In this document: positions 10,992-23,762 of the stretch, one piece after another
Numbering within the stretch: the first letter of the stretch is position 1
How the letters are laid out: each line of letters opens with the position of its first letter
From: Methyloversatilis thermotolerans
Lineage (GTDB): Bacteria > Pseudomonadota > Gammaproteobacteria > Burkholderiales > Rhodocyclaceae
DNA length: 64,000 bases
Assembly: GCF_000372885.1 (NCBI RefSeq)
Contig: NZ_KB889967.1
Coordinates: 1 to 64,000 of the forward strand
Reading direction: 5' to 3'
Program-made: the position numbers and the translations under genes
Notes under the pieces: model-generated
The model's input: the letters and a program-made list of their open reading frames with translations, nothing else
Databases searched by the model: none
What the model was told of the DNA's origin: nothing

Positions 10992-12026
10992 ATGAACCGG
11001 ATTTTCATCAGCTACCGGACGGTCGACGGTGCAAAGGACGCGAGTCGGCTCGCGGCCGATCTCGGGCGTGTCTTCGGTGATGGGCATGTTTTCATCGACA
11101 GACAGGACCTGCGCGGGGGCAAGCGGTGGCGAGAGGAAATCAGCCGCACCCTTGGCGTAAGGCCAGTCGTGCTCGTGCTGGTGACGCCAGGGTTCGCCGG
11201 TGCTCGCCATGCCGATGGTCGCCTGCGCATGGACGACCTCGACGACCCTGTGCGGATGGAGATCGAGTCCGCAATAGAGGCCGGGGCCACACTGCTTCCG
11301 CTGCGGGTGGATGGCACGCCCATGCCGGATGCAGCGATGTTGCCCGCATCCCTGCGTCGTCTCACGACCTATCACGCGCTGCCCCTGCGCACGGATGACT
11401 GGAGCGAAACCGACCTGCCGCGCATCGTCGATGACCTGGTGACGCTGGGTGTGCCGCGTGTCGACATTGCCCGCAGCCTCTTCCCCATGCCTTGGCTTGG
11501 CATCGCGCGCGGCTTTGGCGTCGCCGGGGTATCAGCCATTGCCGCGGTGCTGATCCTTGCGTGGCTGCAGCGGGGATCGGGCGCCGATGGCGAGGTCGTG
11601 CTGCCAGCGACGGCGAGCGGGCCGCTGCGCGAGGCAAGGTTGCCTTCGCCAGACCTGTCCGGTCCCTGGCTGCTCGACACGGCGACCGGGCAGCGCATTG
11701 CTGTCTCGATCCATCAGACCGAATCCCGGCTCGAGCTGCGTTCCGATCCGGTACGCATCGATCACGACCCGGCTTGGCGCACCTATCTCGACACCATTTC
11801 CGCGCAGGACGGGGAACGCCTGACTCATGTCATCTACAGCGCGCGCGGCGAGTTGATCACCGATGCCGCCAGTCTGGCGCTCACCGTGGCCAGCGCCGAC
11901 GAGCGATTCGTCGTCGACACCGGCGCCCTGAAATTGCGCATCGGCCCCAAGGGCCAGGTGATCGCCGGCCAGCTTGTCCTGAACAGCGGCGAGCAGACCA
12001 CTGTCGTGCTGTCGCGCCGACCTTGA
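10992..12026 (+). CDS. TIR-domain protein with one membrane helix and a C-terminal extracytoplasmic domain
   Basis: Residues 1 to about 155 form a bacterial TIR domain: the start IFISYRT, then VFIDRQDLRGGKRW, VVLVLVTPGFAG and DDPVRMEIESA, in which Glu90 is the best candidate for the catalytic glutamate of TIR NADases. A hydrophobic helix spans about 171-192, followed by about 150 residues without a recognised family. The TIR domain would face the cytoplasm. TIR proteins in bacteria can cleave NAD+ or make cyclic ADP-ribose signals, often in phage defence, but no second defence gene is visible here. It precedes the signalling cluster by about 380 bases. Confidence 0.75.
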   Translation: MNRIFISYRTVDGAKDASRLAADLGRVFGDGHVFIDRQDLRGGKRWREEISRTLGVRPVVLVLVTPGFAGARHADGRLRMDDLDDPVRMEIESAIEAGATLLPLRVDGTPMPDAAMLPASLRRLTTYHALPLRTDDWSETDLPRIVDDLVTLGVPRVDIARSLFPMPWLGIARGFGVAGVSAIAAVLILAWLQRGSGADGEVVLPATASGPLREARLPSPDLSGPWLLDTATGQRIAVSIHQTESRLELRSDPVRIDHDPAWRTYLDTISAQDGERLTHVIYSARGELITDAASLALTVASADERFVVDTGALKLRIGPKGQVIAGQLVLNSGEQTTVVLSRRP

Positions 12027-12405: not shown

Positions 12406-13518
12406 ATGATGCGGGAAGCAAACGTCCAGGGCAGCGGGGCACTGGCCTGGGATGCTCTGGCGCTGTACCGTGATGCGGCGACGCTGTGGTCGAACGATCT
12501 GTGGCGCGCGGCGGCCGCGGCGGGTAGCTGCTGGCATCCGGCCGAGCCCGGTTGGCGAGGCGACCCCGGACATCTCGATCTGTGGGTGCAGCAATGTCTG
12601 CGCGGCGGTGCCTCGCTGCTGCTGCGCTCGGTGAGCTGGGTCGAGGCCGTCTGGCGCCTTTCGGTCGAGCCGCTGTGCGAAGGGCGTGACGGCTGGATGG
12701 TGCACCTTCAGCCCGAGGTCTTCTCGCCGCGCCATGCCCAGGACCGGGCGGTTTCACTGCTGGCCGTCGATGACGAGGCCTATATCCTGAATGCGCTGCG
12801 CCGATTGCTGCGCCGGTCGGGCTTCGATCTGCGCACGGCAGGCAGCGCCGACGAAGCGTGGGACATGCTGCAACAGCAGCCGGCGGACATCGTGCTGTCG
12901 GATCAGCGCATGCCGGGTACGACCGGCGTGCAGCTGCTGGCGCGCGTGCGTGATCACGCACCGGATACCGTGCGCATCATCCTCTCTGGCTACAGCGATG
13001 CGCAGTCCATCACCGACGCCATCAATGAAGGCGCCGTCTACAAGTTCATCGCCAAGCCGTGGGATGACGCACAGTTGCTGCTCACGCTGAACGAGGCGGC
13101 TGACGTGTTCCGTACCCGCATGCAGACGCGTCAACTGCAGCTCGCGCTGGCCACGGCGAACGCGGAATTGGGTTCGGCCAACCAGCGGCTGAAGACCTTG
13201 CTGTCGGAACAGGACCACCACATTTCTATCGGCGACTACGCGCTGCGGCTGGCGCAGGACCTGAACGATGCCTTGCCCTTTCCGGTGATCGGCCTGGACG
13301 CCGAGGGCCAGCTCGTGACTGCGAACGATGCGGCGGCGCGCTATCTGGGCGTGAGCGCTGCGGATGGCTCGCTCGCCGCCCTGGTCAGGGGACAGCAGGA
13401 CAGCTTCCGCCGGGGATTCGAGTTCGCCGGACGGCAGTGGTGCCTGTGCATCGGATTGCTCGGCGGTGGCGCCGGACGCGTGATCGCCCTGATGCCGGAG
13501 AGCGGCCATGAACTCTGA
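12406..13518 (+). CDS. Response regulator with a Trp-rich N-terminal domain, REC and a PAS-like C-terminus
   Basis: The REC domain spans about residues 117-235, with acidic pocket VDDE and phospho-acceptor Asp166 in SDQRMPG and the conserved Lys in KPWDD. Residues 1-110 hold many tryptophans and match no family I know. A coiled-coil linker (about 245-275) leads to a short PAS-like segment reading PVIGLDAEGQLV. I use the ATG at 12406 because GAGGGGG precedes it by a good distance; the frame is open to 12208. The REC sequence is close to that of the HD-GYP protein downstream. First gene of the seven-gene signalling run; overlaps the next ORF by 11 bases. Confidence 0.75.
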   Translation: MMREANVQGSGALAWDALALYRDAATLWSNDLWRAAAAAGSCWHPAEPGWRGDPGHLDLWVQQCLRGGASLLLRSVSWVEAVWRLSVEPLCEGRDGWMVHLQPEVFSPRHAQDRAVSLLAVDDEAYILNALRRLLRRSGFDLRTAGSADEAWDMLQQQPADIVLSDQRMPGTTGVQLLARVRDHAPDTVRIILSGYSDAQSITDAINEGAVYKFIAKPWDDAQLLLTLNEAADVFRTRMQTRQLQLALATANAELGSANQRLKTLLSEQDHHISIGDYALRLAQDLNDALPFPVIGLDAEGQLVTANDAAARYLGVSAADGSLAALVRGQQDSFRRGFEFAGRQWCLCIGLLGGGAGRVIALMPESGHEL

Positions 13519-13681
13519 TGCGGACATGATCGCGGACAAGGCCGCAGACGAGCTGCGACTGCGCCAGCGGATCGGAGAGGTGCTGATGGACAATGATCAG
13601 GACGACCCACGCATCCGCCTGCTGACCGAAGTCGTCCTGCGCTGCATGATCCTGGAGCAGTGCGATGAACAGCCCGAGTGA
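13508..13681 (+). CDS. 57-residue acidic/helical protein nested between regulator and HDOD genes
   Basis: The ATG at 13508 lies inside the end of the preceding regulator gene (11-base overlap), and its stop at 13681 lies 17 bases inside the following HDOD gene. The product begins MNSDADMIADKAADELRLRQ and is rich in charged residues, with predicted helix through most of its length. I do not recognise a family. The double overlap suggests translational coupling and a role with its neighbours, such as an adaptor. Confidence 0.5.
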   Translation: MNSDADMIADKAADELRLRQRIGEVLMDNDQDDPRIRLLTEVVLRCMILEQCDEQPE

Positions 13682-14507
13682 CGCGCTCGCCGACGACGTC
13701 GTGCTGCCGCCGTTGCCAGAGGTGGTGGCCGAGCTCATTCCCATGCTGGGACAGGAGCAGGTACATGGTGCGCAACTCGCCCGGACCGTCGGACGCGATC
13801 CGGCTCTGGCCGGTGCGACGCTGAAGCTGGCCAATTCCTCCTTCTTCGGACTGACCGGACGTGTCGCCAGCATGCAGGACGCGATCACGCTGATCGGCGT
13901 CAATGCAGTGCGCAACATGCTGCTGATACTTGGCATGCGCGATGCGTTGAAGCCGGCCTGCGGCACGGTCGATGTCCATGACTTCTGGCTGCATGCGCTC
14001 GAGACCGGAGCGGCTGCGCGTGCGCTGGCACGTCCCCACGATGCCTGCGGGGACGAGGCATTTCTCGCCGGCCTGCTGCACGACCTGGGCAAGCTGGTGC
14101 AGGTATGCAGCTACCCGGACGGTTTTGCGCGCATCAGCGCACAGGTCGCGCAGAGCCGGTGCAGTTGGCGGCAGGCCGAGAGCGAGACCGATTGCCCCGG
14201 GCACGAGGCGTGCGGTGCCATGCTGGCGCATGCCTGGCGGCTGCCGCCCGTGCTCGCCCTGGTGATGTCCGGGCATCACATGCCTGATGGCGACGCACCG
14301 CTGTTGGTGCACCGCGTGCACCTGGCCAATCTGATCGCACATGTCGCGATTGCCGATCAGCCGGGCGCGGAGCCGGCCGCACGCCTGCAAGCCATGAGCT
14401 GGCAGAGGCTGGCACCGGCCGAGTCGGACATCGAGCGCGCAGTAACCGCCGTCCGCCGCCTGCGCGCCCGGGCAGGCGAATGGCGCGCCCTTCTGCGCGA
14501 CACCTGA
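13665..14507 (+). CDS. HDOD-domain signalling protein
   Basis: The 280-residue protein is an HDOD domain: PLPEVVAELIPMLGQEQ, then KLANSSFFGL, ITLIGVNAVRNMLL, and the HD-like LLHDLGK, which HDOD proteins keep while lacking enzyme activity. Such proteins act as scaffolds or output modules in chemotaxis, c-di-GMP and twitching systems. The start ATG overlaps the small upstream ORF. It lies between a REC-PAS regulator and a REC-HD-GYP regulator, so it probably receives a signal from one of them. Confidence 0.85.
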   Translation: MNSPSDALADDVVLPPLPEVVAELIPMLGQEQVHGAQLARTVGRDPALAGATLKLANSSFFGLTGRVASMQDAITLIGVNAVRNMLLILGMRDALKPACGTVDVHDFWLHALETGAAARALARPHDACGDEAFLAGLLHDLGKLVQVCSYPDGFARISAQVAQSRCSWRQAESETDCPGHEACGAMLAHAWRLPPVLALVMSGHHMPDGDAPLLVHRVHLANLIAHVAIADQPGAEPAARLQAMSWQRLAPAESDIERAVTAVRRLRARAGEWRALLRDT

Positions 14508-14623
14508 CGGCGGTTCGCGGATACCCGATGTGGCAGCGCACAAGTTGAACTAAGGTTAAATGCATAAAGACATGCGCAGGCGAGGACGTGAACCGTGAAC
14601 AGATTCACGCCCTGGAAACTGGC

Positions 14624-15955
14624 ATGAACATGAACGACACCTCGCAGTTGCAGCCCGCCTCGACGGGCGACGCCATCGCACCGCTGGCGGTGCTGTGTGT
14701 CGATGACGAGCGCGGCATCCTGTCCTCGCTCCGTCGCCTGCTCCGGCCGCTGGGACACCAGGTCCATGTGGCGGAGAGTGCCGCCGAGGCCCTCGGCCTG
14801 CTCGAAACCACCCCGGTCGATCTGGTCATTTCCGACATGCGCATGCCCGAGATGGATGGCGCGGAGTTCCTTGCGCGCGTGCGCGCACGCTGGCCGCAGC
14901 CGGTACGGGTGCTGCTCACCGGCTACTCGGACCTGTCTTCGACGATAGACGCGATCAACCGCGGCGAGATCCATCGCTTCGTGTCCAAGCCGTGGGACGA
15001 CGAACATCTGCTGTCCGTGGTGCGGGACGGACTGTCCCGCCGCATGCTGGAGCGCGAGCGCGAGCAACTGCGCCGGCGCATCGAGGAACAGAACCAGGAA
15101 CTGCTGCAGATGAATGTGCTGCTCGAGGAGAAGGTCGAGGCGCGCACAGCGGAGCTTGCGCTCGCCAACGATCATCTCAAGCAGAACTTCCTCACGTCGA
15201 TCAAGGTGTTCTCCAATCTGATCGAGATTCGCCATCCGGTGCTCAAGGGCCATTCGCGCCGCGTGTCGGAACTCGCGCGTACCATGGCGCGGCTGTTGAA
15301 TCTGCCGCAGGCGCAGATCAACGAGGTGTTCGCGGCGTCCCTGCTGCACGACATCGGCAAGATCGGCCTCAGTGACGAGGTCATCGCGCAGCCCAGCGAC
15401 CGGCTGGTGGGAGAGCCGCTGAAGGCGTGGCGCGCGCATGCGGCTCTCGGCGAGTCGGCGCTGCTGGCGCTCGATTCACTGCGCGCATCGGCCCGCATCA
15501 TCCGTCACCACCACGAGCGCTACGACGGAAAGGGATTCCCGGACGGGCTCCAGGGCGAGGCGATTCCGCTTGGCGCGCGCATCCTCGCCGTCGCCAATGA
15601 TTTCGACAGCTACATGCACGGCCTGGTCTGCGGCACGCGGCACAGCGAGGACGAGTCCTTCGACTACATCGCGCGTGGCCGCGGTTCACGCTATGACGCG
15701 GCCGTGGTCGAGGCACTGTCGGCGGCGCTGGCCGAGGAGGCGAACGCGCGTCTGCGCGACGACGCCCTGCCGGTGGACAAGCTGGAACCCGGCATGGTGC
15801 TCTCGCGCGATCTGGTCGATCGCGACGGCCGCCTGCTGCTTGCGGCCGATTTCCGAATGGATGGTGTCGTGATCCGCCAGATCCGCGACTATGCGTCCCG
15901 GGTCAATCCCACCATGAAGGTCCACGTCCACCCCCCTGTGTCGAAAGCGAGCTGA
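14624..15955 (+). CDS. RpfG-like response regulator with REC and HD-GYP domains
   Basis: Residues about 20-135 form a REC domain (Asp71 in SDMRMPEMDG); a coiled coil of about 50 residues follows, then an HD-GYP domain with His242-Asp243 in LLHDIGKIG. The signature reads HHERYDGKGFPDG, with GFP in place of GYP. HD-GYP enzymes hydrolyse cyclic-di-GMP; whether this one is active is uncertain. A C-terminal tail contains KLEPGMVLSRDL, common after such domains. The start at 14624 is preferred over the GTG at 14588 because of the GGAAA upstream. Next gene follows after three bases. Confidence 0.85.
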   Translation: MNMNDTSQLQPASTGDAIAPLAVLCVDDERGILSSLRRLLRPLGHQVHVAESAAEALGLLETTPVDLVISDMRMPEMDGAEFLARVRARWPQPVRVLLTGYSDLSSTIDAINRGEIHRFVSKPWDDEHLLSVVRDGLSRRMLEREREQLRRRIEEQNQELLQMNVLLEEKVEARTAELALANDHLKQNFLTSIKVFSNLIEIRHPVLKGHSRRVSELARTMARLLNLPQAQINEVFAASLLHDIGKIGLSDEVIAQPSDRLVGEPLKAWRAHAALGESALLALDSLRASARIIRHHHERYDGKGFPDGLQGEAIPLGARILAVANDFDSYMHGLVCGTRHSEDESFDYIARGRGSRYDAAVVEALSAALAEEANARLRDDALPVDKLEPGMVLSRDLVDRDGRLLLAADFRMDGVVIRQIRDYASRVNPTMKVHVHPPVSKAS

Positions 15956-15958
15956 ACC

Positions 15959-16327
15959 ATGGCACTGTCCGTACTTGTCGTCGATGACTCGCCGATGGCG
16001 AGAAAGATGCTGATCAAGTCCCTGCCGCCGGACTGGGACATCGACATCCGTCAGGCCGGCAACGGCCATGAGGCGCTGGCCGCCTATCGCGAGGGCCGGG
16101 CCGACGTGATTTTCCTCGACCTCAACATGCCGGGGCTCGACGGCTACGGCGTGCTGGAGACGCTGCAGCGCGAGGATCTGAACTGCTTCGTCATCGTCGT
16201 GTCGGCGGACGTGCAGCCCCAAGCGCGCGAGCGCGTGATGCAGATGGGCGCCATCGCCTTCGTGCAGAAGCCGGTGGATGCCGCCAAGCTGGAGCCGGTG
16301 CTGCGCGAGTACGGGGTGGTGGTATGA
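15959..16327 (+). CDS. CheY-like single-domain response regulator
   Basis: 122 residues forming one REC domain: acidic pair Asp9-Asp10 in VVDDS, phospho-acceptor Asp54 in FLDLNMPG, a Ser/Thr switch in VIVVSAD and the Lys in QKPVD. It follows the HD-GYP gene by three bases and overlaps the CheC-like gene by four (ATGA), so the two products are very likely made together. The adjacent CheC-like phosphatase probably acts on it. Confidence 0.88.
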   Translation: MALSVLVVDDSPMARKMLIKSLPPDWDIDIRQAGNGHEALAAYREGRADVIFLDLNMPGLDGYGVLETLQREDLNCFVIVVSADVQPQARERVMQMGAIAFVQKPVDAAKLEPVLREYGVVV

Positions 16328-16941
16328 ACGCCGCGCTGCTGACCGAGGAGCAGAACGAGGCGCTGCAGGAGATCGCCAATATCGGCATGGGGCGGGCCGG
16401 GCGCTCGATCGCCGGCGTGTTCGACGAATTCGTCGAACTGTCGGTGCCTCGTGTGCGGGAGGCTCGGCTTGACAGCCTGACCGAGGCAGTCGCCGGCCTG
16501 ATTCCGGAAGAGACGCTCACCGCGGTACGCCAGGGCTTCTTCGGACGGGTGCGTGGCGAGGTGATCGTCGTGTTCGGCATGAATGGCTGCCGTGATCTTG
16601 CCGGACTCATGGGCTATGGCGATTCCCTGGTCGCAGCCGATGAGGACGAACTGCTGCTGGATGTGGCGAACGTGATCGTGAGTGCCTGCCTGGGCGGCAT
16701 TGCCGAACAGCTGTCGACCGAACTGTCGGTGTCCGCCCCCTCGGTGTTGGCCAGCCACGTGCCGCCCGCCGGCCTGTTCGGCGCGACGCGCGAGGCTCCC
16801 GACGGCAGCGGCGCCCTCATCGTCGAGGTGAATTTCCGGCTGGAACGGCACAGCTTTGCGTGTTCGTTGCTCATGATGCTGCCGGCCGATGGCGTCGGCG
16901 CGATAAGGCAGGCGCTGGATGACTTCCTCGCCAGTTTCTGA
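16324..16941 (+). CDS. CheC-like protein phosphatase of a response regulator
   Basis: 205 residues with the two repeated CheC active-site elements: E-x2-N in EALQEIANIGMGRA near residue 15, and D-x3-D-x2-N in DELLLDVANVIVS near residue 115. CheC enzymes dephosphorylate CheY-like proteins. No CheA, CheW, CheB or CheR is present in the window, so this is a CheC used outside a standard chemotaxis operon. It overlaps the CheY-like gene by four bases. Confidence 0.85.
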   Translation: MNAALLTEEQNEALQEIANIGMGRAGRSIAGVFDEFVELSVPRVREARLDSLTEAVAGLIPEETLTAVRQGFFGRVRGEVIVVFGMNGCRDLAGLMGYGDSLVAADEDELLLDVANVIVSACLGGIAEQLSTELSVSAPSVLASHVPPAGLFGATREAPDGSGALIVEVNFRLERHSFACSLLMMLPADGVGAIRQALDDFLASF

Positions 16942-16981
16942 AGCGCACCGGTCGTCACCGGCCTTGACGGAGGAATCTGCC

Positions 16982-18307
16982 GTGGATCGCAACGAATCCT
17001 GCTTGAGCGCCACCGATCGCATGATCGACATGATGGACGTCGGCGTGTTCGCGGTGGATCGCGAACTGCATGTACGGAGCTGGAATGCCTTCATGGTGGC
17101 GCATGCCGGCAAGGGGCGGCGAGAGGTGCTCGGGCGCTCTATCTTCGAGGTGTTTCCCGAACTGCCGCGTTCCTGGCTGCAGAAGAAATTCGATCGCGTA
17201 TTCGCGCTCGGGGCGCCGTCCTTCACGTCGTGGGAACAGAGACCCTGGCTGTTCCGGCTGCCGCACAACCGCCCGATCACCGGCGGCGTCGACTGCATGC
17301 AGCAGGACACGCGTCTGGTGCCGCTGAAGAATGGCGATGGCGAGGTCGCCCTGGTGCTGGTGTGCGTTTTCGACGTGACCGACGCGGCGATGCTGCAGCG
17401 CCGCCTGGCGGAAACCGTAACCGCCCTGGAGGCCGAGCGGGCCGAACAGCAGAAGCTGATTGCGCGTCTGGCGGAGGCGCAGGAACAGCTTGTCCAGTCG
17501 GAAAAGCTCGCCGCCATCGGCCAACTCGCGGCCGGCGTCGCGCACGAGATCAACAATCCGGTCGGCTTCGTCATGTCGAACTTCCGTTCGCTTGAACAGT
17601 ACCTGGATGGCGCGTTCGCCCTGGTCGAAGCGTTCGACCGCCACATCGATCTGCTTCCCGACGCGGCGCGGACGGCGATCGAGAAGCTCAAGAGCGACAT
17701 GGACTACGAATTTGTCGCCGACGATGCGCGCAGTCTGGTGGCGGAAAGCCGCGACGGACTGGAGCGCGTCAAGCGCATCGTGGCCGATCTGCGCGATTTC
17801 TCCCGGGTCGGCGAAACCGACTGGCAGTGGGCCAGCGTGCATGGCTGCCTGGACAGCACGCTCAATGTGGTCATGAACGAAATCAAGTACAAGGCTCAGG
17901 TGGTCAAGGATTATGGCGAACTGCCGCAGATCGAGTGCATGCCGTTCCAGCTTAACCAGGTGTTCCTGAATCTGCTGGTGAATGCGGCGCAGGCCATAGA
18001 GGGGCAGGGCAGCATCACGCTGCGCACACGCGCCGAGGCCGAGCAGGTCGTGATCCAGATCGCCGATACCGGCTGCGGCATGCCGCCGGACGTGCTGCGG
18101 CGCATCTTCGATCCCTTCTTCACCACCAAGCCGGTCGGCAAGGGAACGGGTCTGGGATTGTCGGTCACGCACAGCATCATCGGTCGCCATCACGGCAGCA
18201 TCGCGGTGGACAGCACGCCCGGACAGGGCACCACCTTCACCTTGCGCCTGCCCGTGCGGCAGGCGGCCGCGCAGTCGACGGCGGACCGCGAGGTGCAGGC
18301 CGCCTGA
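16982..18307 (+). CDS. PAS-domain histidine kinase
   Basis: A soluble 441-residue kinase: a PAS domain (about residues 15-130, DVGVFAVDRELHVRSWN), a coiled coil with KLIARLAEAQEQL, a HisKA-type helix with His188 in GVAHEINNPVGF, and an ATPase domain with NAAQAIEG and the G2 box GTGLGLS. The start is the GTG at 16982, which has a very good GGAGGA seven bases upstream; an in-frame ATG at 16919 inside the CheC-like gene lacks one. It ends the signalling cluster and is the likely phosphate donor for the three REC proteins. Confidence 0.88.
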   Translation: MDRNESCLSATDRMIDMMDVGVFAVDRELHVRSWNAFMVAHAGKGRREVLGRSIFEVFPELPRSWLQKKFDRVFALGAPSFTSWEQRPWLFRLPHNRPITGGVDCMQQDTRLVPLKNGDGEVALVLVCVFDVTDAAMLQRRLAETVTALEAERAEQQKLIARLAEAQEQLVQSEKLAAIGQLAAGVAHEINNPVGFVMSNFRSLEQYLDGAFALVEAFDRHIDLLPDAARTAIEKLKSDMDYEFVADDARSLVAESRDGLERVKRIVADLRDFSRVGETDWQWASVHGCLDSTLNVVMNEIKYKAQVVKDYGELPQIECMPFQLNQVFLNLLVNAAQAIEGQGSITLRTRAEAEQVVIQIADTGCGMPPDVLRRIFDPFFTTKPVGKGTGLGLSVTHSIIGRHHGSIAVDSTPGQGTTFTLRLPVRQAAAQSTADREVQAA

Positions 18308-18399
18308 TCCGCCGGTGCAGCACGTCCGGACGGCAGGCGCCGGTCGCTGCCTGTTGTAACGGATTTATCGCCGACGCGCGTCGCGGCTCGCTTAAACTC

Positions 18400-18425
18400 G
18401 GGAACTTCCGATTTTTCAGGTTCCC
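18400..18425 (+). promoter_or_regulatory. Hairpin covering the manC leader
   Basis: GGGAAC (18400-18405) pairs with GTTCCC (18420-18425), ending three bases before the ATG at 18429. It could hide the ribosome binding site and control translation. Confidence 0.3.
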
Positions 18426-18428
18426 GTC

Positions 18429-19862
18429 ATGACCTTGCAGCCCGTCATTCTCTGCGGAGGCTCAGGCACCCGTCTGTGGCCGCTGTCGCGCGAGCGCTAT
18501 CCGAAGCAGCTTCTGCCGCTCGATGGCGAGCGTACCCTGCTGCAGGATACCGCGCTGCGCGCCGGTGCCCGCGATCTGGAACTGGCGCCGCCACTGGTGG
18601 TGTGCAACGAGGAATACCGCTTCCTGACCGCCGAACAACTGCGCCAGATCGGCGTGCATCCAGCCGCATTGCTGCTCGAGCCGGTCGGCCGCAATACCGC
18701 GCCGGCACTGGCGCTGGCCGCACTGGCGGCAAACAGCCCGGACACCGTGCTGCTGGTCATGCCCTCGGATCACGTGATCCGCGACACGGCCGCGTTCCAG
18801 GATGCGGTCGCGATCGGCGCCGCGCAGGCCGCGCAGGGTGCCGTGGTCACCTTCGGCATCACGCCGGACCGGGCGGAAACCGGCTATGGCTACATCAAGG
18901 TAGGGGCGGTGCAGGCGGGCGGTCCGTCGCGCGTGCTCGAGCGCTTCGTCGAGAAGCCGGATGCGCAGACCGCCGCCGCCTATCTGGAAAGCGGCGACTA
19001 CCTGTGGAACGCCGGCATCTTCATGATGAAGGCCGGCGTCGCGCTCGATCTGCTCAAGCGCTTCCGGCCCGACATCGAAGCGGCCAGCCGGGCGGCTTAT
19101 CAGGGGGGGGCGGCCGATCGCGACTTCTATCGCGTGGACAAGGCCGCGTTCGCCGCCTGCCCGTCCGATTCGATCGACTATGCGGTGATGGAACCGCTGG
19201 CGGCCGGCGAGCCGCGGCTGGCGCCGGCCGTCGTGGTGCCGCTGGACGCCGGCTGGTCCGACGTCGGTGCGTGGGACGCGCTGTGGCAGGTGGCCGACAA
19301 GGATGAGGCCGGCAATGTCGCGCGCGGCGACGTGCTGCTGCAGGACACGCAGGACAGTCTGGTGTTCGCCGAAACGCGCATGGTGAGCTGCCTGGGCCTG
19401 AAGGATGTGGTGGTGGTGGAAACCAGCGACGCCGTCATGGTAGCGGCCAAGGACCGCACGCAGGACGTCAAGCGCATCGTGACCGAACTGAAGGCGAGGA
19501 AGCGTCCGGAAGCGGAAAACCATCGCAAGGTGTACCGTCCCTGGGGCTACTACGACTCGATCGACGCCGGGGCGCGTTTCCAGGTCAAGCGCATCGTGGT
19601 CAATCCGGGAGCCGCGCTGTCGCTGCAGATGCATCACCATCGTGCCGAACACTGGATCGTGGTCAGCGGCACCGCACGCGTGACCTGCGGCGACAAGGTG
19701 CTGCTGCTGTCCGAGAACCAGTCCACCTATATCCCGCTGGGCACCACGCACCGGCTGGAGAACCCGGGCAAACTGCCGCTGGAAATGATAGAGGTGCAGT
19801 CCGGCAGCTATCTGGGCGAGGACGACATCGTGCGCTTCGAGGATACCTACGGCCGCGCCTGA
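18429..19862 (+). CDS. manC: Mannose-1-phosphate guanylyltransferase / mannose-6-phosphate isomerase
   Basis: Bifunctional enzyme of 477 residues giving GDP-mannose for polysaccharides. The N-terminal nucleotidyltransferase has ILCGGSGTRLWPLSRERYPKQ-type start and FVEKPD; the C-terminal cupin isomerase domain contains QMHHHRAEHW and YIPLGTTHRLENPG. It is also called algA, xanB or cpsB in other bacteria. No other polysaccharide gene is adjacent. It ends convergent with the chemoreceptor gene, 30 bases away. Confidence 0.93.
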   Translation: MTLQPVILCGGSGTRLWPLSRERYPKQLLPLDGERTLLQDTALRAGARDLELAPPLVVCNEEYRFLTAEQLRQIGVHPAALLLEPVGRNTAPALALAALAANSPDTVLLVMPSDHVIRDTAAFQDAVAIGAAQAAQGAVVTFGITPDRAETGYGYIKVGAVQAGGPSRVLERFVEKPDAQTAAAYLESGDYLWNAGIFMMKAGVALDLLKRFRPDIEAASRAAYQGGAADRDFYRVDKAAFAACPSDSIDYAVMEPLAAGEPRLAPAVVVPLDAGWSDVGAWDALWQVADKDEAGNVARGDVLLQDTQDSLVFAETRMVSCLGLKDVVVVETSDAVMVAAKDRTQDVKRIVTELKARKRPEAENHRKVYRPWGYYDSIDAGARFQVKRIVVNPGAALSLQMHHHRAEHWIVVSGTARVTCGDKVLLLSENQSTYIPLGTTHRLENPGKLPLEMIEVQSGSYLGEDDIVRFEDTYGRA

Positions 19863-19892: not shown

Positions 19893-21545
19893 CTAGACCG
19901 TGAAGCAGTCCAGCCGTTGGCGCATGGACTGCGACAGCGCATTCATCGCGTCCGCCGCGGCGCTGACGCCGGTCACCGCCTGACTGTTGCGTTCCCCCAT
20001 GTCGGCGATGCGTTCCACCTGGCGTGCGATGCTTTCGCTGGCGGCCGTCTGCTCCGACAGTGCCTCCGAAATTTCGTCGCTGGCCACCACGGCCTCATGC
20101 GATGCCGCGCGCATGGAAGCGATCGAATCCGACACTTCGCGCGTGGAGGCCGTGATGCCCTCGAACTGATGCACCAGCGCCTGCATGCTGGCCAGAGTAT
20201 CGGCCGTCACCGTCTGCACCGCGCTCACCACGCCATCGATCTGGCGTGTCGCCTCCGACGTGCGCTCGGCCAGCTTGCGCACTTCGTCGGCCACGACCGC
20301 GAAGCCGCGGCCCTGTTCGCCGGCCCGTGCCGCTTCGATCGCGGCATTCAGTGCCAGCAGATTGGTCTGGTCCGCGATGCCCTTGATCGTCGCCGCGATG
20401 TCGCGGATGCCCTCGACCTGGGCGTTCAGCGTTTCCATGCCGGCCGCCGTGCTCTGCACCTCCTGGCTTGCGCCAAGTACGGCATGGGTTGCCGAACCGA
20501 TGATGTTGCCGCCCATGTCGGCCTGTTCCATCGAGCGATGCGAAACGTTGCGCGCCTGGCCAGCGCTGTCGCTGACGTGTGCGACGCTGACCGCGAGTTC
20601 CTCGGCGGCGGCGGCCATGCCTGATGTGGCGTCCTTCTGTTCGGTCACCGCGCCGGCCAGGGTATCCACCGAGCCGTACAGCACGGATGAATGCTCCGCG
20701 ACATGGGCGGCGGTGTCCTTCATCACATGCAAGGTTTTCTGCAGTTCGGCGAACAGTGCGTTGATCGATGCCCCGGCTTCGGAAAGTTCGTCGCCGCGGT
20801 TGTCCGGCGCGCGTACCGTGAGATCCAGTCGGGCGCGTGCCGTGCCGAGCGCGCTGCGCAGAGAACCCATGCTCTGGCTCAGACGACGTACCGTGAGCAC
20901 GATGCCGACGACAAGGACGACCGAAAGTACGGCCACCGTCGATCCGAGCGCCCACAGGCCGGTGCGGTAAAGACCCGCCGTGCGGTCGCGCGTCTGCTGG
21001 TCCAGCGCCTGCAGATCCTGTTCGATGTCGCGCGTCAGTGCGCTCATTGCCTCGGTGGCGGCGCGGTCCATGCCCTTTACTGCGCGATCGACCTGCTTGC
21101 CGGTGTCCGGGTCACCGATGTCGAAGGACAGCAGAGCCGCGCGATAGCGCTCGAGCATGCCGTGGTGTGCCTGCAGCAGCGCATCCACCTCCCCGGCGCG
21201 CGCAGAGCCGGCACCGCGCAGCCGTTCTCCGATGTCCTGCAGCCGACTGCTCACCTGGCCTGCATGTTTCTCGAAACTGTCCCGGTGCTTCTTCAACTGT
21301 TCCGGATCGTTGCCTCGGATCAGGATGTTCTTCCACTCCTGAACCTGGGTCTTGAAATCCACGCTGGCGGTCTGCACGTCGAGCCCGATGCGGGTCATGG
21401 CATGCAGGTGAGCGAGATCCTGTCCGACGCCGCTGTCCAGCCGGTAGAGCTGGAACAGGCCGAATCCGCCTGCGGCAAGCAGGCCGGCGAGCGCCACGAC
21501 GCCCAGCGCGAGCAGTCGCCCGCGCAATGTCACGAAAACTCGCAT
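19893..21545 (-). CDS. Methyl-accepting chemotaxis protein
   Basis: 550 residues with an N-terminal membrane helix (about 10-34), a periplasmic four-helix sensor of about 160 residues, a second helix (about 205-228), HAMP and a cytoplasmic signalling domain whose tip reads [20 protein letters not shown]. The ATG at 21545 follows GAGGGG; an in-frame ATG at 21578 lies upstream. No chemotaxis operon is in the window, so it would feed one located elsewhere. Confidence 0.92.
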
Positions 21546-21617
21546 GCTCAGCCCCTCGAAGGCAAGAAGCTGTTTCAACGGAGGAAAACCGGAAAAACTT
21601 TAAGGCGCTCCCGGGCC

Positions 21618-21788: not shown

Positions 21789-23762
21789 TTATCGCTCGTC
21801 CATGGCAGACGCGTTCCAGACCGCGATGGTATTCCTGCCGTCGGCTTTTGCGGCATACATGGCGCAGTCGGCTCTTCCCACCAGCGTGTCCACATCGTCC
21901 CCGTCATCGGGACAGAGTGTGATGCCCACGCTGGCCGATATGTGTGCCGTGCCGTCGCGTGTCAGGAAAGGCTCGCCGAGCCGGGCGCGTATTTTCTCCG
22001 CGACTGCACGCGCGGCGTCGACCGAACGTGTTTCCGGCAACAGAGCGACGAATTCGTCGCCGCCGTAGCGCGCGAGCGTATCCGCCGCGCGCAGGCAGCC
22101 CTGCATGCGACGCGTGGCCTCGACGAGAAGGGCATCGCCAGCGCCATGGCCCAGTCGGTCATTGACCGCCTTGAAATGGTCCAGGTCGATGAACATGAGG
22201 CAGAAGCTGCGTCCGTAGCGCCGGGCCGTCACCAGGGTGCGGTTCAGCCTGTCCGCCAGCAGGGCGCGGTTGGGCAGGCCGGTCAGGCCGTCGTGGGTGG
22301 CCAGCCAGGCAATCCGCGCCTCGTCCGCCTTGCGATCACTGATGTCGGCCATCACGATAATGGCGCCCGCCGCCTGACCCGCTTCATTGCTTCGCGACAC
22401 GCCAGACGCCAGCACGGTGACTTCGCCGCGGGCGCGCCCGTCCAGCGTGAGCTCCATGCGCACCGACTCTCCGGCCATGAGCGCTGCCGCCATCGATGCT
22501 GCCGCGTGGCGACCATTCGCAGCCGCGAGCTCGTCCAGCGAAAGTCCTTCGATGTCGGACGCCGATCGGGTCAGCATGCGCTGCAGTCCCGGGTTGACGA
22601 ATTCGATGCGACCCTGCTCATCAAGCGAAAGAATGCCTTCGCCGGACAGGTTCACCAGGGTCGAGTACAGGCGGTTGCTTGCTGCAAGGGACGCGCCCAG
22701 TTCAGCCAGACGGGCGTTGTTCAGGCGCGCGTTCCCGAGGCCGGTCGCGAGCGTGAGCGCGAGCGCGCCGAACAATCCCACCAGCGCGAGCTCGGTGTAC
22801 CAGAGATCGATGTCGGATGCCGCTTCTTCGCGCTGTTCGACCAGAAGTCGCCAACGCCGTCCTTCCATGCCGATGGATTGCGTGTGCGAGGGCGCATCGA
22901 ACCGGACCGGATCGCCATCGTGACTGTCGAAAATCAGCCGTTCCGGTCTGGCCTCTTCGCCGTCGAAAATGCGCAGACGCACGCCGTCAAGATGATCTCC
23001 CAGCGTTCCGCGCATCAGGTCCTTCATGCGGAACGGGCTGTATACCCAGCCTCGCAGCGCGGCTCTGCGCTGCTCGACCGTGTCGGTCGCCATGCCCGGA
23101 TGATAGCTCGGCAGGTAGAGCAGCACGCCCGACTGGATATCATGTTCGGTTTCCTGCACCAGGACGACGCGACCGCTCAGGGCGGGTTCGCCGCTGTCAC
23201 GTGCGCGATGCATCGCCTCCCGCCTGACCGGCTCGGACATCATGTCGAACGCGAAGGCGCGCTGGTTTCGCCAGTCCATCGGTTCGAGAAACACGATGCT
23301 GCTGTATTCGTCGCGCACGCTGGGGGGACGCACCACATAGTCCGCATATCCCGCCCGTCGCATCGATGCCTGATGCACCTCGAGCTGACCGGCCGGAATG
23401 TAGAGCGCGAAGCCGACGCCCTGAATACCCGGGAAGTCGGTTTGCAGCGACAGCGCCGATGTGTAGCGGCGCCAGTCCTGTTCGGTGACCTCGTCGGAAG
23501 CGTCGAACAGCGCGCGTGCGCCGCGCAGAATCTGGCAATAGGCCTGCATGCGCTGTTCGATGCGCTGTCCGAGGTCCCGCGTAATGAACTGCAGCCGTTC
23601 CTGGGTGCGCTCATGGTGGCGTTTGCCCACCATGAACCACGCGACCAGACAGCCTGCCAGCACAAGGACGGCTGCGAGCAGGAGCGGGTGGACATGTGCC
23701 CCGACAGGAGACTTCTCGACTGACCCGGCGGGGGCTTGGGGCGGGTGGGAGCCGTCGCTCAT
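21789..23762 (-). CDS. CHASE-PAS-GGDEF diguanylate cyclase
   Basis: 657 residues. A membrane helix (about 27-46) precedes a CHASE sensor domain (about 90-280) facing the periplasm, a second helix (about 325-345), a PAS domain (about 365-480, with GILSLDEQGRIEFVNP) and a GGDEF domain (about 490-650). The active site YGGDEF is intact and an inhibitory RxxD site (RAAD) lies five residues before it, so an active, product-inhibited cyclase is expected. It is divergent to ettA across 136 bases. Confidence 0.92.
   Translation of the reverse strand: MSDGSHPPQAPAGSVEKSPVGAHVHPLLLAAVLVLAGCLVAWFMVGKRHHERTQERLQFITRDLGQRIEQRMQAYCQILRGARALFDASDEVTEQDWRRYTSALSLQTDFPGIQGVGFALYIPAGQLEVHQASMRRAGYADYVVRPPSVRDEYSSIVFLEPMDWRNQRAFAFDMMSEPVRREAMHRARDSGEPALSGRVVLVQETEHDIQSGVLLYLPSYHPGMATDTVEQRRAALRGWVYSPFRMKDLMRGTLGDHLDGVRLRIFDGEEARPERLIFDSHDGDPVRFDAPSHTQSIGMEGRRWRLLVEQREEAASDIDLWYTELALVGLFGALALTLATGLGNARLNNARLAELGASLAASNRLYSTLVNLSGEGILSLDEQGRIEFVNPGLQRMLTRSASDIEGLSLDELAAANGRHAAASMAAALMAGESVRMELTLDGRARGEVTVLASGVSRSNEAGQAAGAIIVMADISDRKADEARIAWLATHDGLTGLPNRALLADRLNRTLVTARRYGRSFCLMFIDLDHFKAVNDRLGHGAGDALLVEATRRMQGCLRAADTLARYGGDEFVALLPETRSVDAARAVAEKIRARLGEPFLTRDGTAHISASVGITLCPDDGDDVDTLVGRADCAMYAAKADGRNTIAVWNASAMDER

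What the first reader, a model, noticed from the sequence alone, without database searches (positions are those of the whole stretch)
12406..18307. Seven-gene signalling module: REC-PAS, 57-aa ORF, HDOD, REC-HD-GYP, CheY, CheC, PAS kinase
All genes are co-oriented, and four of the six junctions overlap or abut within three bases. It pairs a CheC-type phosphatase and a CheY-like receiver with a soluble HisKA kinase instead of CheA, and adds an HDOD and a cyclic-di-GMP domain. I know of HDOD, HD-GYP and CheC parts separately; this combination as one unit is not a system I can name. The kinase may drive three receivers, with CheC resetting at least the CheY-like one.
Basis: partly seen in the sequence, partly recalled or inferred. 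Interest (0 to 1): 0.72.

Follow-up and report, generated by a model that had tools for sequence, protein, structure and literature searches.

The report
Signalling operon with CheY-CheC-PAS cassette
Seven neighbouring bacterial genes form a signalling operon predicted to adjust the messenger cyclic-di-GMP; three of them belong to a widespread cassette, for which I found no name, in which a chemotaxis-type CheY and CheC pair sits beside one kind of sensor domain whose attached output part has been swapped repeatedly in evolution.

Summary
In detail: seven co-oriented genes at 12406-18307 (REC-PAS, small ORF, HDOD, REC-HD-GYP, CheY, CheC/CheX, PAS-HisKA kinase). A congener (G007) has the same operon upstream of manC without CheY-CheC; its junction keeps a CheY-start remnant (26 of 31 nt), so the pair was probably deleted there. 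CheY-CheC plus the downstream PAS form a cassette of beta- and gammaproteobacteria: over 369 class genomes, 47 of 48 strong hits to this PAS subfamily lie directly downstream of CheC. The PAS carries GGDEF most often, a kinase less often, sometimes nothing; these outputs change 16 times by parsimony on a quick CheC tree of 85 rows. REC-HD-GYP lies within 8.5 kb of 11 of 36 kinase versions and 0 of 112 GGDEF versions. A Vibrio coralliilyticus plasmid holds HDOD, CheY, CheC, PAS-kinase, REC-EAL and a REC-HD-GYP relative together. Most likely the kinase drives REC-HD-GYP, and CheC dephosphorylates CheY, the pair tuning the PAS protein rather than serving a kinase in general. I found no name for the set in the held literature, though single members are mentioned (B. 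cenocepacia, P. syringae). Function is inferred throughout.

The parts
12406..13518 (+). Gene 1: unknown N-terminal ~112 aa, receiver (REC), weak PAS-like C-terminus
   Evidence: 62% identical full-length homologue in congener G007; N-terminus found no other homologue among the 167 loci; AlphaFold model unusable (pLDDT 42.6)
13508..13681 (+). Gene 2: 57-aa small ORF
   Evidence: No family; syntenic 63-aa ORF in G007 with the same 11-nt overlap with gene 1; 5 of 2000 shuffles as similar; BLASTP no alignment
13665..14507 (+). Gene 3: HDOD-domain protein
   Evidence: Pfam HDOD 160.8 bits; solved HDOD relatives, best 3m1t; 58% identical in G007
14588..15955 (+). Gene 4: REC-HD-GYP response regulator, predicted c-di-GMP phosphodiesterase (start may be ATG 14624)
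   Evidence: NCBIfam NF053512 NosR family 528.8 bits, cut-off 400; keeps HDIGK and HHExxDGxGFP, GFP as in 4r8z
15959..16327 (+). Gene 5: CheY-like single-domain receiver
   Evidence: cassette signature [ST][AG][DN]-x-Q, Gln in 161 of 161 cassette rows
16324..16941 (+). Gene 6: CheC/CheX-type CheY-P phosphatase homologue
   Evidence: Pfam CheX 33.9 bits; T. maritima CheC 1xkr E=3.5e-11 over residues 6-190; E16/N19 invariant in 13 rows
16919..18307 (+). Gene 7: soluble PAS-HisKA-HATPase kinase (start may be GTG 16982)
   Evidence: HEINN H-box; 71% identical to G007 kinase; 41% to V. coralliilyticus p319 kinase
15953..15983 (+). Stretch (gene 4 stop plus CheY start) that survives as a 26-of-31-nt remnant at the G007 REC-HD-GYP/kinase junction
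   Evidence: best match of the G007 junction in the 63 of 64 kb scanned, both strands, in 3-kb blocks (score 21, next 15)

Best explanation
A soluble two-component operon that adjusts c-di-GMP and carries a reset cassette. (1) The PAS-HisKA kinase senses an unknown cytoplasmic signal and phosphorylates the REC-HD-GYP of the same operon (and perhaps REC-PAS), changing c-di-GMP hydrolysis: inferred from operon pairing and from NosK to NosR phosphotransfer shown elsewhere. (2) CheC dephosphorylates the adjacent CheY: inferred from kept active-site residues. (3) CheY-CheC acts on, or together with, this PAS subfamily whatever its output, because the PAS-CheC pairing is nearly strict while the output swaps; so CheY-CheC is probably a timer or allosteric adaptor of the PAS protein rather than a substrate pair of the kinase. 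(4) Where the PAS carries GGDEF it would make c-di-GMP directly; where it carries a kinase a neighbouring REC-HD-GYP can supply the c-di-GMP output. Recurrence of parts and order is shown; every biochemical step is inferred.
For: PAS directly downstream of CheC in 47 of 48 hits over 369 genomes. Outputs at 169 CheC hits in fetched loci: GGDEF 112, kinase 36, PAS alone 8 (two of them cut by contig ends), no such PAS 13; REC-HD-GYP within 8.5 kb in 11 of 36 kinase cases, 0 of 112 GGDEF cases. Outputs change 16 times by parsimony on a quick CheC tree of 85 rows. The congener operon keeps kinase and REC-HD-GYP at 70-71% identity with CheY-CheC gone. Ferrovum, Ralstonia-group and Vibrio versions. 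HD-GYP catalytic residues kept. B. pseudomallei NosK phosphorylates NosR and has the same H-E-I-N-N motif (PMC12570481, passages). B. cenocepacia: deleting the DGC gene bcam2836 raises swimming by up to 18% (PMC6335245, passages); deleting BCAM2837 (CheC plus CheY domains) leaves swimming but impairs swarming (PMC3296584, passages).
Against: No biochemistry. CheY-CheC is dispensable to the operon in G007. REC-HD-GYP is near only 11 of 36 kinase versions, and in five of these (Aquabacterium x2, Accumulibacter x3) it is near, not contiguous; HD-GYP ORFs without REC also lie within 8.5 kb of three GGDEF versions (L111, L117, L138) and one PAS-only version (L125). The Ralstonia-group (L044) and Vibrio HD-GYP relatives look degenerate, so output may be regulatory. 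The Fisher tests ignore phylogeny. The PAS profile came from CheC-adjacent loci, and only up to 12 first-look candidates per genome were scored, so the pairing may be less strict than 47 of 48. The PAS signal is unknown, and contact between CheC and PAS is unproven.
Confidence: 0.5

Rival explanations
1. One reading: the PAS kinase phosphorylates all three receivers (REC-PAS, REC-HD-GYP, CheY); CheY is a phosphate sink or second output, and CheC drains it.
For: Same operon; all three RECs keep the acceptor Asp (read); a kinase is attached to the PAS at 36 of 169 CheC hits; kinase, CheY and CheC are also contiguous in the Ralstonia group and V. coralliilyticus.
Against: CheY-CheC occurs mostly without a cassette kinase (112 GGDEF versions; 66 of 112 such loci show no HATPase ORF within 8.5 kb). 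In G007 the kinase and the other receivers persist without CheY-CheC.
Confidence: 0.25
2. Link to the flagellar pathway: CheY is phosphorylated by a CheA encoded elsewhere and reports chemotaxis state to the PAS protein; CheC belongs to chemotaxis.
For: CheA lies beside CheY-CheX-PAS kinase in Agrobacterium vitis and beside CheC-PAS-RR in Azospirillum thermophilum; this genome has three CheA-type genes and two CheD genes; swarming defect of the BCAM2837 deletion.
Against: The Agrobacterium PAS gene is not of this subfamily by my profile (L012 scored 'none'). No che gene other than CheY and CheC lies in the window operon. I did not search the other loci systematically for CheA.
Confidence: 0.15
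3. CheY-CheC is a passenger in this operon with no functional tie to REC-PAS, HDOD, REC-HD-GYP and kinase.
For: Clean loss in G007 with the other genes kept.
Against: Recurrent contiguity with the same kind of PAS-kinase and with REC-HD-GYP or HDOD in Ferrovum, the Ralstonia group and Vibrio and near-strict CheC-PAS pairing.
Confidence: 0.1

Closest known systems
NosP-NosK-NosR of B. pseudomallei (PMC12570481, passages read)
   Same: Soluble kinase with HEINN motif plus a REC-HD-GYP; the window's REC-HD-GYP exceeds the cut-off of NCBIfam's NosR-family model
   Different: The passages describe a three-gene operon (nosRPK) without CheY, CheC, HDOD or REC-PAS; NosR HD-GYP degenerate (HG-GTP), window's intact; no FIST/NosP gene in the window operon (FIST matches lie far away)
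BCAM2837/BCAM2836 locus of B. cenocepacia (PMC3296584 and PMC6335245, passages)
   Same: CheC plus CheY domains predicted to be cotranscribed with a diguanylate cyclase and a kinase; my B. cenocepacia hit shows CheC followed by PAS-GGDEF. That this is BCAM2837/2836 is inferred, not checked by locus tag
   Different: GGDEF output; no HDOD, REC-HD-GYP or REC-PAS mentioned in the passages
CheC/CheX/FliY phosphatases (T. maritima 1xkr, 2f9z)
   Same: Fold and E-x-x-N sites
   Different: Not in a CheA operon; paired with a PAS gene
Psyr_0886 REC-CheC of P. syringae (PMC2222644, PMC5654926, passages)
   Same: REC plus CheC in one protein, listed as an orphan 'CheC-like' response regulator; resembles the fused form of the pair (not aligned here)
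   Different: No operon or PAS partner mentioned in the passages read
Vibrio coralliilyticus p319 cluster, record 12470-19223, annotated but unnamed
   Same: HDOD, CheY (44%), CheC (27%), PAS-kinase (41%) and REC-HD-GYP relative (34%) in one run of genes
   Different: HDOD carries its own REC; adds REC-EAL and Hpt; HD-GYP residues degenerate; no REC-PAS or small ORF annotated

Membership tests
CheC/CheX phosphatase family | Homology over the full CheC fold | tested here: met
   Pfam CheX 33.9 bits, cut-off 27; T. maritima CheC E=3.5e-11 over residues 6-190. AlphaFold of a natural REC-CheC fusion relative (not the window protein) hits 2f9z and 1xkr first. The Pfam CheC model itself is below cut-off (18.9, cut-off 22)
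CheC/CheX phosphatase family | E-x-x-N active-site motif(s) (recalled as defining) | tested here: met
   Site 1 E 161/163 and N 161/163; site 2 D 118 or E 44 of 164, N 136/164; the window has E..N and D..N
CheC/CheX phosphatase family | CheY~P dephosphorylation | not testable with these tools
   Needs biochemistry
NosR (NCBIfam family of REC-HD-GYP regulators) | NCBIfam NF053512 above cut-off | tested here: met
   528.8 bits, cut-off 400; five relatives 505-559 bits
NosPKR NO-sensing system | FIST-domain NosP in the operon | tested here: not met
   Three FIST matches, at C1:609-610 kb and 2,802 kb; an HK-REC ORF lies in the latter region
HD-GYP phosphodiesterase | HD and HHE..DG.GYP catalytic residues | tested here: met
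   HDIGK, HHERYDGKGFP; GFP also in 4r8z
HD-GYP phosphodiesterase | c-di-GMP hydrolysis | not testable with these tools
   Needs biochemistry
CheA chemotaxis pathway | CheA/CheW/MCP in the operon | tested here: not met
   None among the seven proteins; CheA-type matches at C1:164, 184 and 1,543 kb; one MCP at 19893-21578 on the - strand, beyond manC
CheY-CheC-PAS cassette (defined in this report) | CheY signature with Gln, CheC, and the PAS subfamily immediately downstream | tested here: met

The most novel reading that the evidence does not exclude
CheY-CheC-PAS is a general, previously unnamed plug-in sensor and reset device: CheY~P, through CheC, gates one dedicated PAS subfamily, and evolution has repeatedly exchanged the PAS output (diguanylate cyclase, histidine kinase with REC-HD-GYP, or none) while keeping the gate. 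Chemotaxis-style phosphatase control would thus be re-used for c-di-GMP signalling without CheA.
Probability: 0.4. Interest if true: 0.75.

Novelty: new variant of a known kind. Interest (0 to 1): 0.57.

Why it matters
If right, a CheC phosphatase (a chemotaxis part) has been re-used as a dedicated partner of a PAS sensor controlling c-di-GMP in beta- and gammaproteobacteria. The congener that lost only CheY-CheC, and the repeated swaps of output domain, make the question 'what does CheC do outside chemotaxis?' directly testable by comparing paired operons and paired GGDEF/kinase versions.

Tried and rejected
Chemotaxis operon: rejected, no CheA/CheW/MCP inside. NosPKR NO system: the REC-HD-GYP fits the model family but there is no NosP in the operon. 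'G007 has no CheC at all': corrected, since all 13 genus genomes hold a weak CheX-like paralogue elsewhere; only the operon copy is missing. Gene 1: structure prediction failed (pLDDT 42.6), not used. PDB search with CheY at E <= 1e-12 gave only a designed protein.

Literature: ten searches gave no name for the gene set; 'chec' also matches 'check', so hit counts are inflated, and EmbRS was such a false lead. Of the 15 papers opened I read only the passages found by search terms, none in whole; other papers were seen as listings only.

Limits and corrections. My one search used the kinase one base out of frame (start 16983), so its silence on the kinase means nothing; that the 11 congener regions beside manC hold no hit to the PAS, CheC, HDOD or HD-GYP models rests. 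The 169-hit set contains some loci twice (reached from two collections); at 70% dereplication REC-HD-GYP is near 4 or 5 of 20 kinase and 0 of 59 GGDEF rows. One search kept the best 80 of 253 matches, mostly Burkholderiaceae. Of 80 class-survey CheC hits, 76 were read in fetched regions. In some searches only part of the first-look candidates per genome was scored. The first tree (87 rows, 18 changes) included two rows, L028 and L121, whose PAS-only label comes from contig ends; without them it is 85 rows and 16 changes, of which starred branches alone force 7 for GGDEF and 4 for kinase. Both are quick trees with long branches, and rows of different output were kept even when over 70% alike, which favours counting changes. 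That PDB 3mxq (E=6.4e-30 to the PAS profile, named only 'Sensor protein') comes from V. cholerae, and that VC1086 lies in a similar cluster, is recall and unchecked.
Full report
WHAT IS THERE. Two corrections. The PAS of gene 1 is only weakly recognisable (20.5 bits against a cut-off of 21.8), and its first ~112 residues match no family. Two starts are uncertain: REC-HD-GYP at GTG 14588 or ATG 14624, and the kinase at ATG 16919 or GTG 16982 behind a GGAGG. Junctions are -11, -17, +80, +3, -4 and -23 nt with the ORF starts. One weak terminator-like site lies at 18398-18411, before manC, and no sigma-70-like promoter was found (both counts are below the shuffle mean).

THE CONGENER WITHOUT CheY-CheC. 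The window's CheC protein has no match at E <= 0.001 in any of the 12 other genus genomes; it matches 4 of 41 genomes in all, own included. The REC-HD-GYP (E <= 1e-40) is in one of those 12 congeners, G007. There, REC-PAS (62%), HDOD (58%), REC-HD-GYP (70-71%) and PAS-kinase (71%) lie in the same order, with a 63-aa ORF between the first two, directly upstream of manC (89%) as in the window. CheY and CheC are missing there; a weak CheX-like paralogue present in all 13 genus genomes lies elsewhere. The G007 junction holds 31 nt of which 26 equal the window's REC-HD-GYP stop and CheY start. This is the best match of that junction in the 63 of 64 kb scanned (score 21, next 15), and the CheY codons run in frame into the kinase. 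The simplest reading is that a seven-gene ancestor lost CheY-CheC by a deletion that fused the CheY start to the kinase. It rests on two genomes. In four congeners nearer by manC identity (93-94%) about 6.7 kb of other DNA lies between a TIR-domain gene and manC; in the two I opened, L199 and L201, it holds an ORF of ~1,800 aa, in L199 with a CHAT domain. So the operon sits at a variable place.

THE CASSETTE. A profile of 13 CheC rows (A1) hits 70 of 369 class genomes, 80 places. A profile of the PAS domain, made from the window and 26 other loci (A4), hits 48 places in 45 of the same 369 genomes at E <= 1e-20. In 47 of 48 the PAS lies directly downstream of a CheC hit on the same strand, 21-103 nt between domain matches. 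The exception (G092:C224) is a partial match; conversely 47 of 80 CheC hits have such a strong PAS downstream. A4 was built from CheC-adjacent loci and at most 12 candidates per genome were scored, so the result says that strong relatives elsewhere in these genomes are rare, not that they are absent. Of 169 CheC hits in the fetched loci, 161 have CheY upstream or fused. The PAS gene carries GGDEF in 112, a kinase in 36 and nothing more in 8 (two cut by contig ends); 13 have no such PAS. On a quick CheC tree of 85 rows the output changes 16 times by parsimony (shuffled mean 23.6); starred branches alone force 7 changes for GGDEF and 4 for kinase. Cassette CheYs carry a signature after the switch residue, [ST][AG][DN]-x-Q, with Gln in 161 of 161 rows; the stricter motif [ST][AG]D[VI]Q is in 126 of 161 and in 0 of 120 other REC domains of the same loci. 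CheC keeps E and N of site 1 in 161 of 163 rows each. An AlphaFold model of a natural REC-CheC fusion (28 rows, pLDDT 88.5, pTM 0.82) matches solved CheC best; I could not read its coordinates, so the docking of REC on the CheC site is untested.

THE c-di-GMP SIDE. REC-HD-GYP lies within 8.5 kb of CheC in 11 of 36 kinase cases (window, Ferrovum, Ralstonia group x4, Aquabacterium x2, Accumulibacter x3) and in 0 of 112 GGDEF cases. After 70% dereplication it is 4 or 5 of 20 against 0 of 59; the Fisher values there ignore phylogeny, and the class survey alone shows no significant difference (1 of 10 against 0 of 53). HD-GYP ORFs without REC lie near three GGDEF, three kinase and one PAS-only locus. 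Ferrovum L038 has REC-HD-GYP, CheY, CheC, PAS-kinase, REC-PAS-like and HDOD in a row, six of the seven kinds (its 'PAS' part is homologous to gene 1's C-terminus but not called by Pfam). V. coralliilyticus p319 has REC-HDOD, CheY, CheC, PAS-kinase, REC-EAL, a REC-HD-GYP relative and Hpt, with kinase 41% and REC-HD-GYP 34% identical. The window's HD-GYP keeps catalytic residues. The Ralstonia-group protein L044 has HG and GTP at the two motifs, the change reported for B. pseudomallei NosR, and the Vibrio one is also altered. REC, HDOD and REC-HD-GYP also cluster, with a kinase in the region and no CheC beside them, in relatives G016, G017, G023, G024, G037 and G038, so that part is a second recurrent set.

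HOW IT MOST LIKELY WORKS. Shown: recurrence of parts, order, loss and swapping. Inferred: the kinase phosphorylates REC-HD-GYP, as NosK does NosR (PMC12570481, passages); CheC dephosphorylates CheY; CheY-CheC acts on the PAS protein, because it is the PAS and not the output that stays with CheC. Weak outside support: in B. cenocepacia deletion of the DGC gene bcam2836 raises swimming (PMC6335245, passages), and deletion of BCAM2837, described as CheC plus CheY domains and predicted to be cotranscribed with a diguanylate cyclase and a kinase, leaves swimming but impairs swarming (PMC3296584, passages). That these are the cassette seen in my B. cenocepacia hit (CheC 148014-148595, PAS-GGDEF 148655-149584) is inferred from order.

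WHAT IS KNOWN. Ten searches of the held library (listed under Tried and rejected) gave single members but no name or description of CheY-CheC-PAS, nor of the seven-gene set. The library lacks most subscription papers, so this is weak evidence of novelty.

VERDICT. A real operon; a new variant of a known kind (two-component c-di-GMP signalling plus a CheC-type phosphatase), more interesting for the cassette it exposes than for its own gene count.

Noticed in passing
window 10992-12026 (+); L199-L202: TIR-domain gene upstream of the operon. In four congeners a 56-58% relative lies about 6.7 kb from manC; in the two opened (L199, L201) an ORF of ~1,800 aa follows it, in L199 with CHAT, TPR-S and abhydrolase-type domains. 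It takes the slot filled by the seven-gene operon here and may be a defence-type site; PADLOC gave only a weak ThsB match for the TIR gene.
   Followed up: partly
G000:C1:3192101-3192619 (L094 9376-10056): Second, weak CheX-like paralogue, with a match in all 13 genus genomes; in this genome's copy the first E-x-x-N site is not evident, so it may not be a phosphatase.
   Followed up: partly
window 19893-21578 (-) and 21789-23762 (-): A methyl-accepting chemotaxis protein and a GGDEF protein lie just beyond manC on the other strand.
   Followed up: no
L012 (Agrobacterium vitis plasmid) and L212 (Azospirillum thermophilum plasmid): CheC/CheX with a PAS protein and a response regulator next to CheA chemotaxis genes, so an alphaproteobacterial form may be wired to CheA.
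   Followed up: no
L175-L180: A separate recurrent cluster of REC (or GGDEF-EAL-REC), HDOD and REC-HD-GYP with a kinase in the region, without CheC beside it.
   Followed up: partly
PDB 3mxq: A solved 'Sensor protein' PAS domain matches the cassette PAS profile at E=6.4e-30, so a structure of this PAS subfamily already exists.
   Followed up: no
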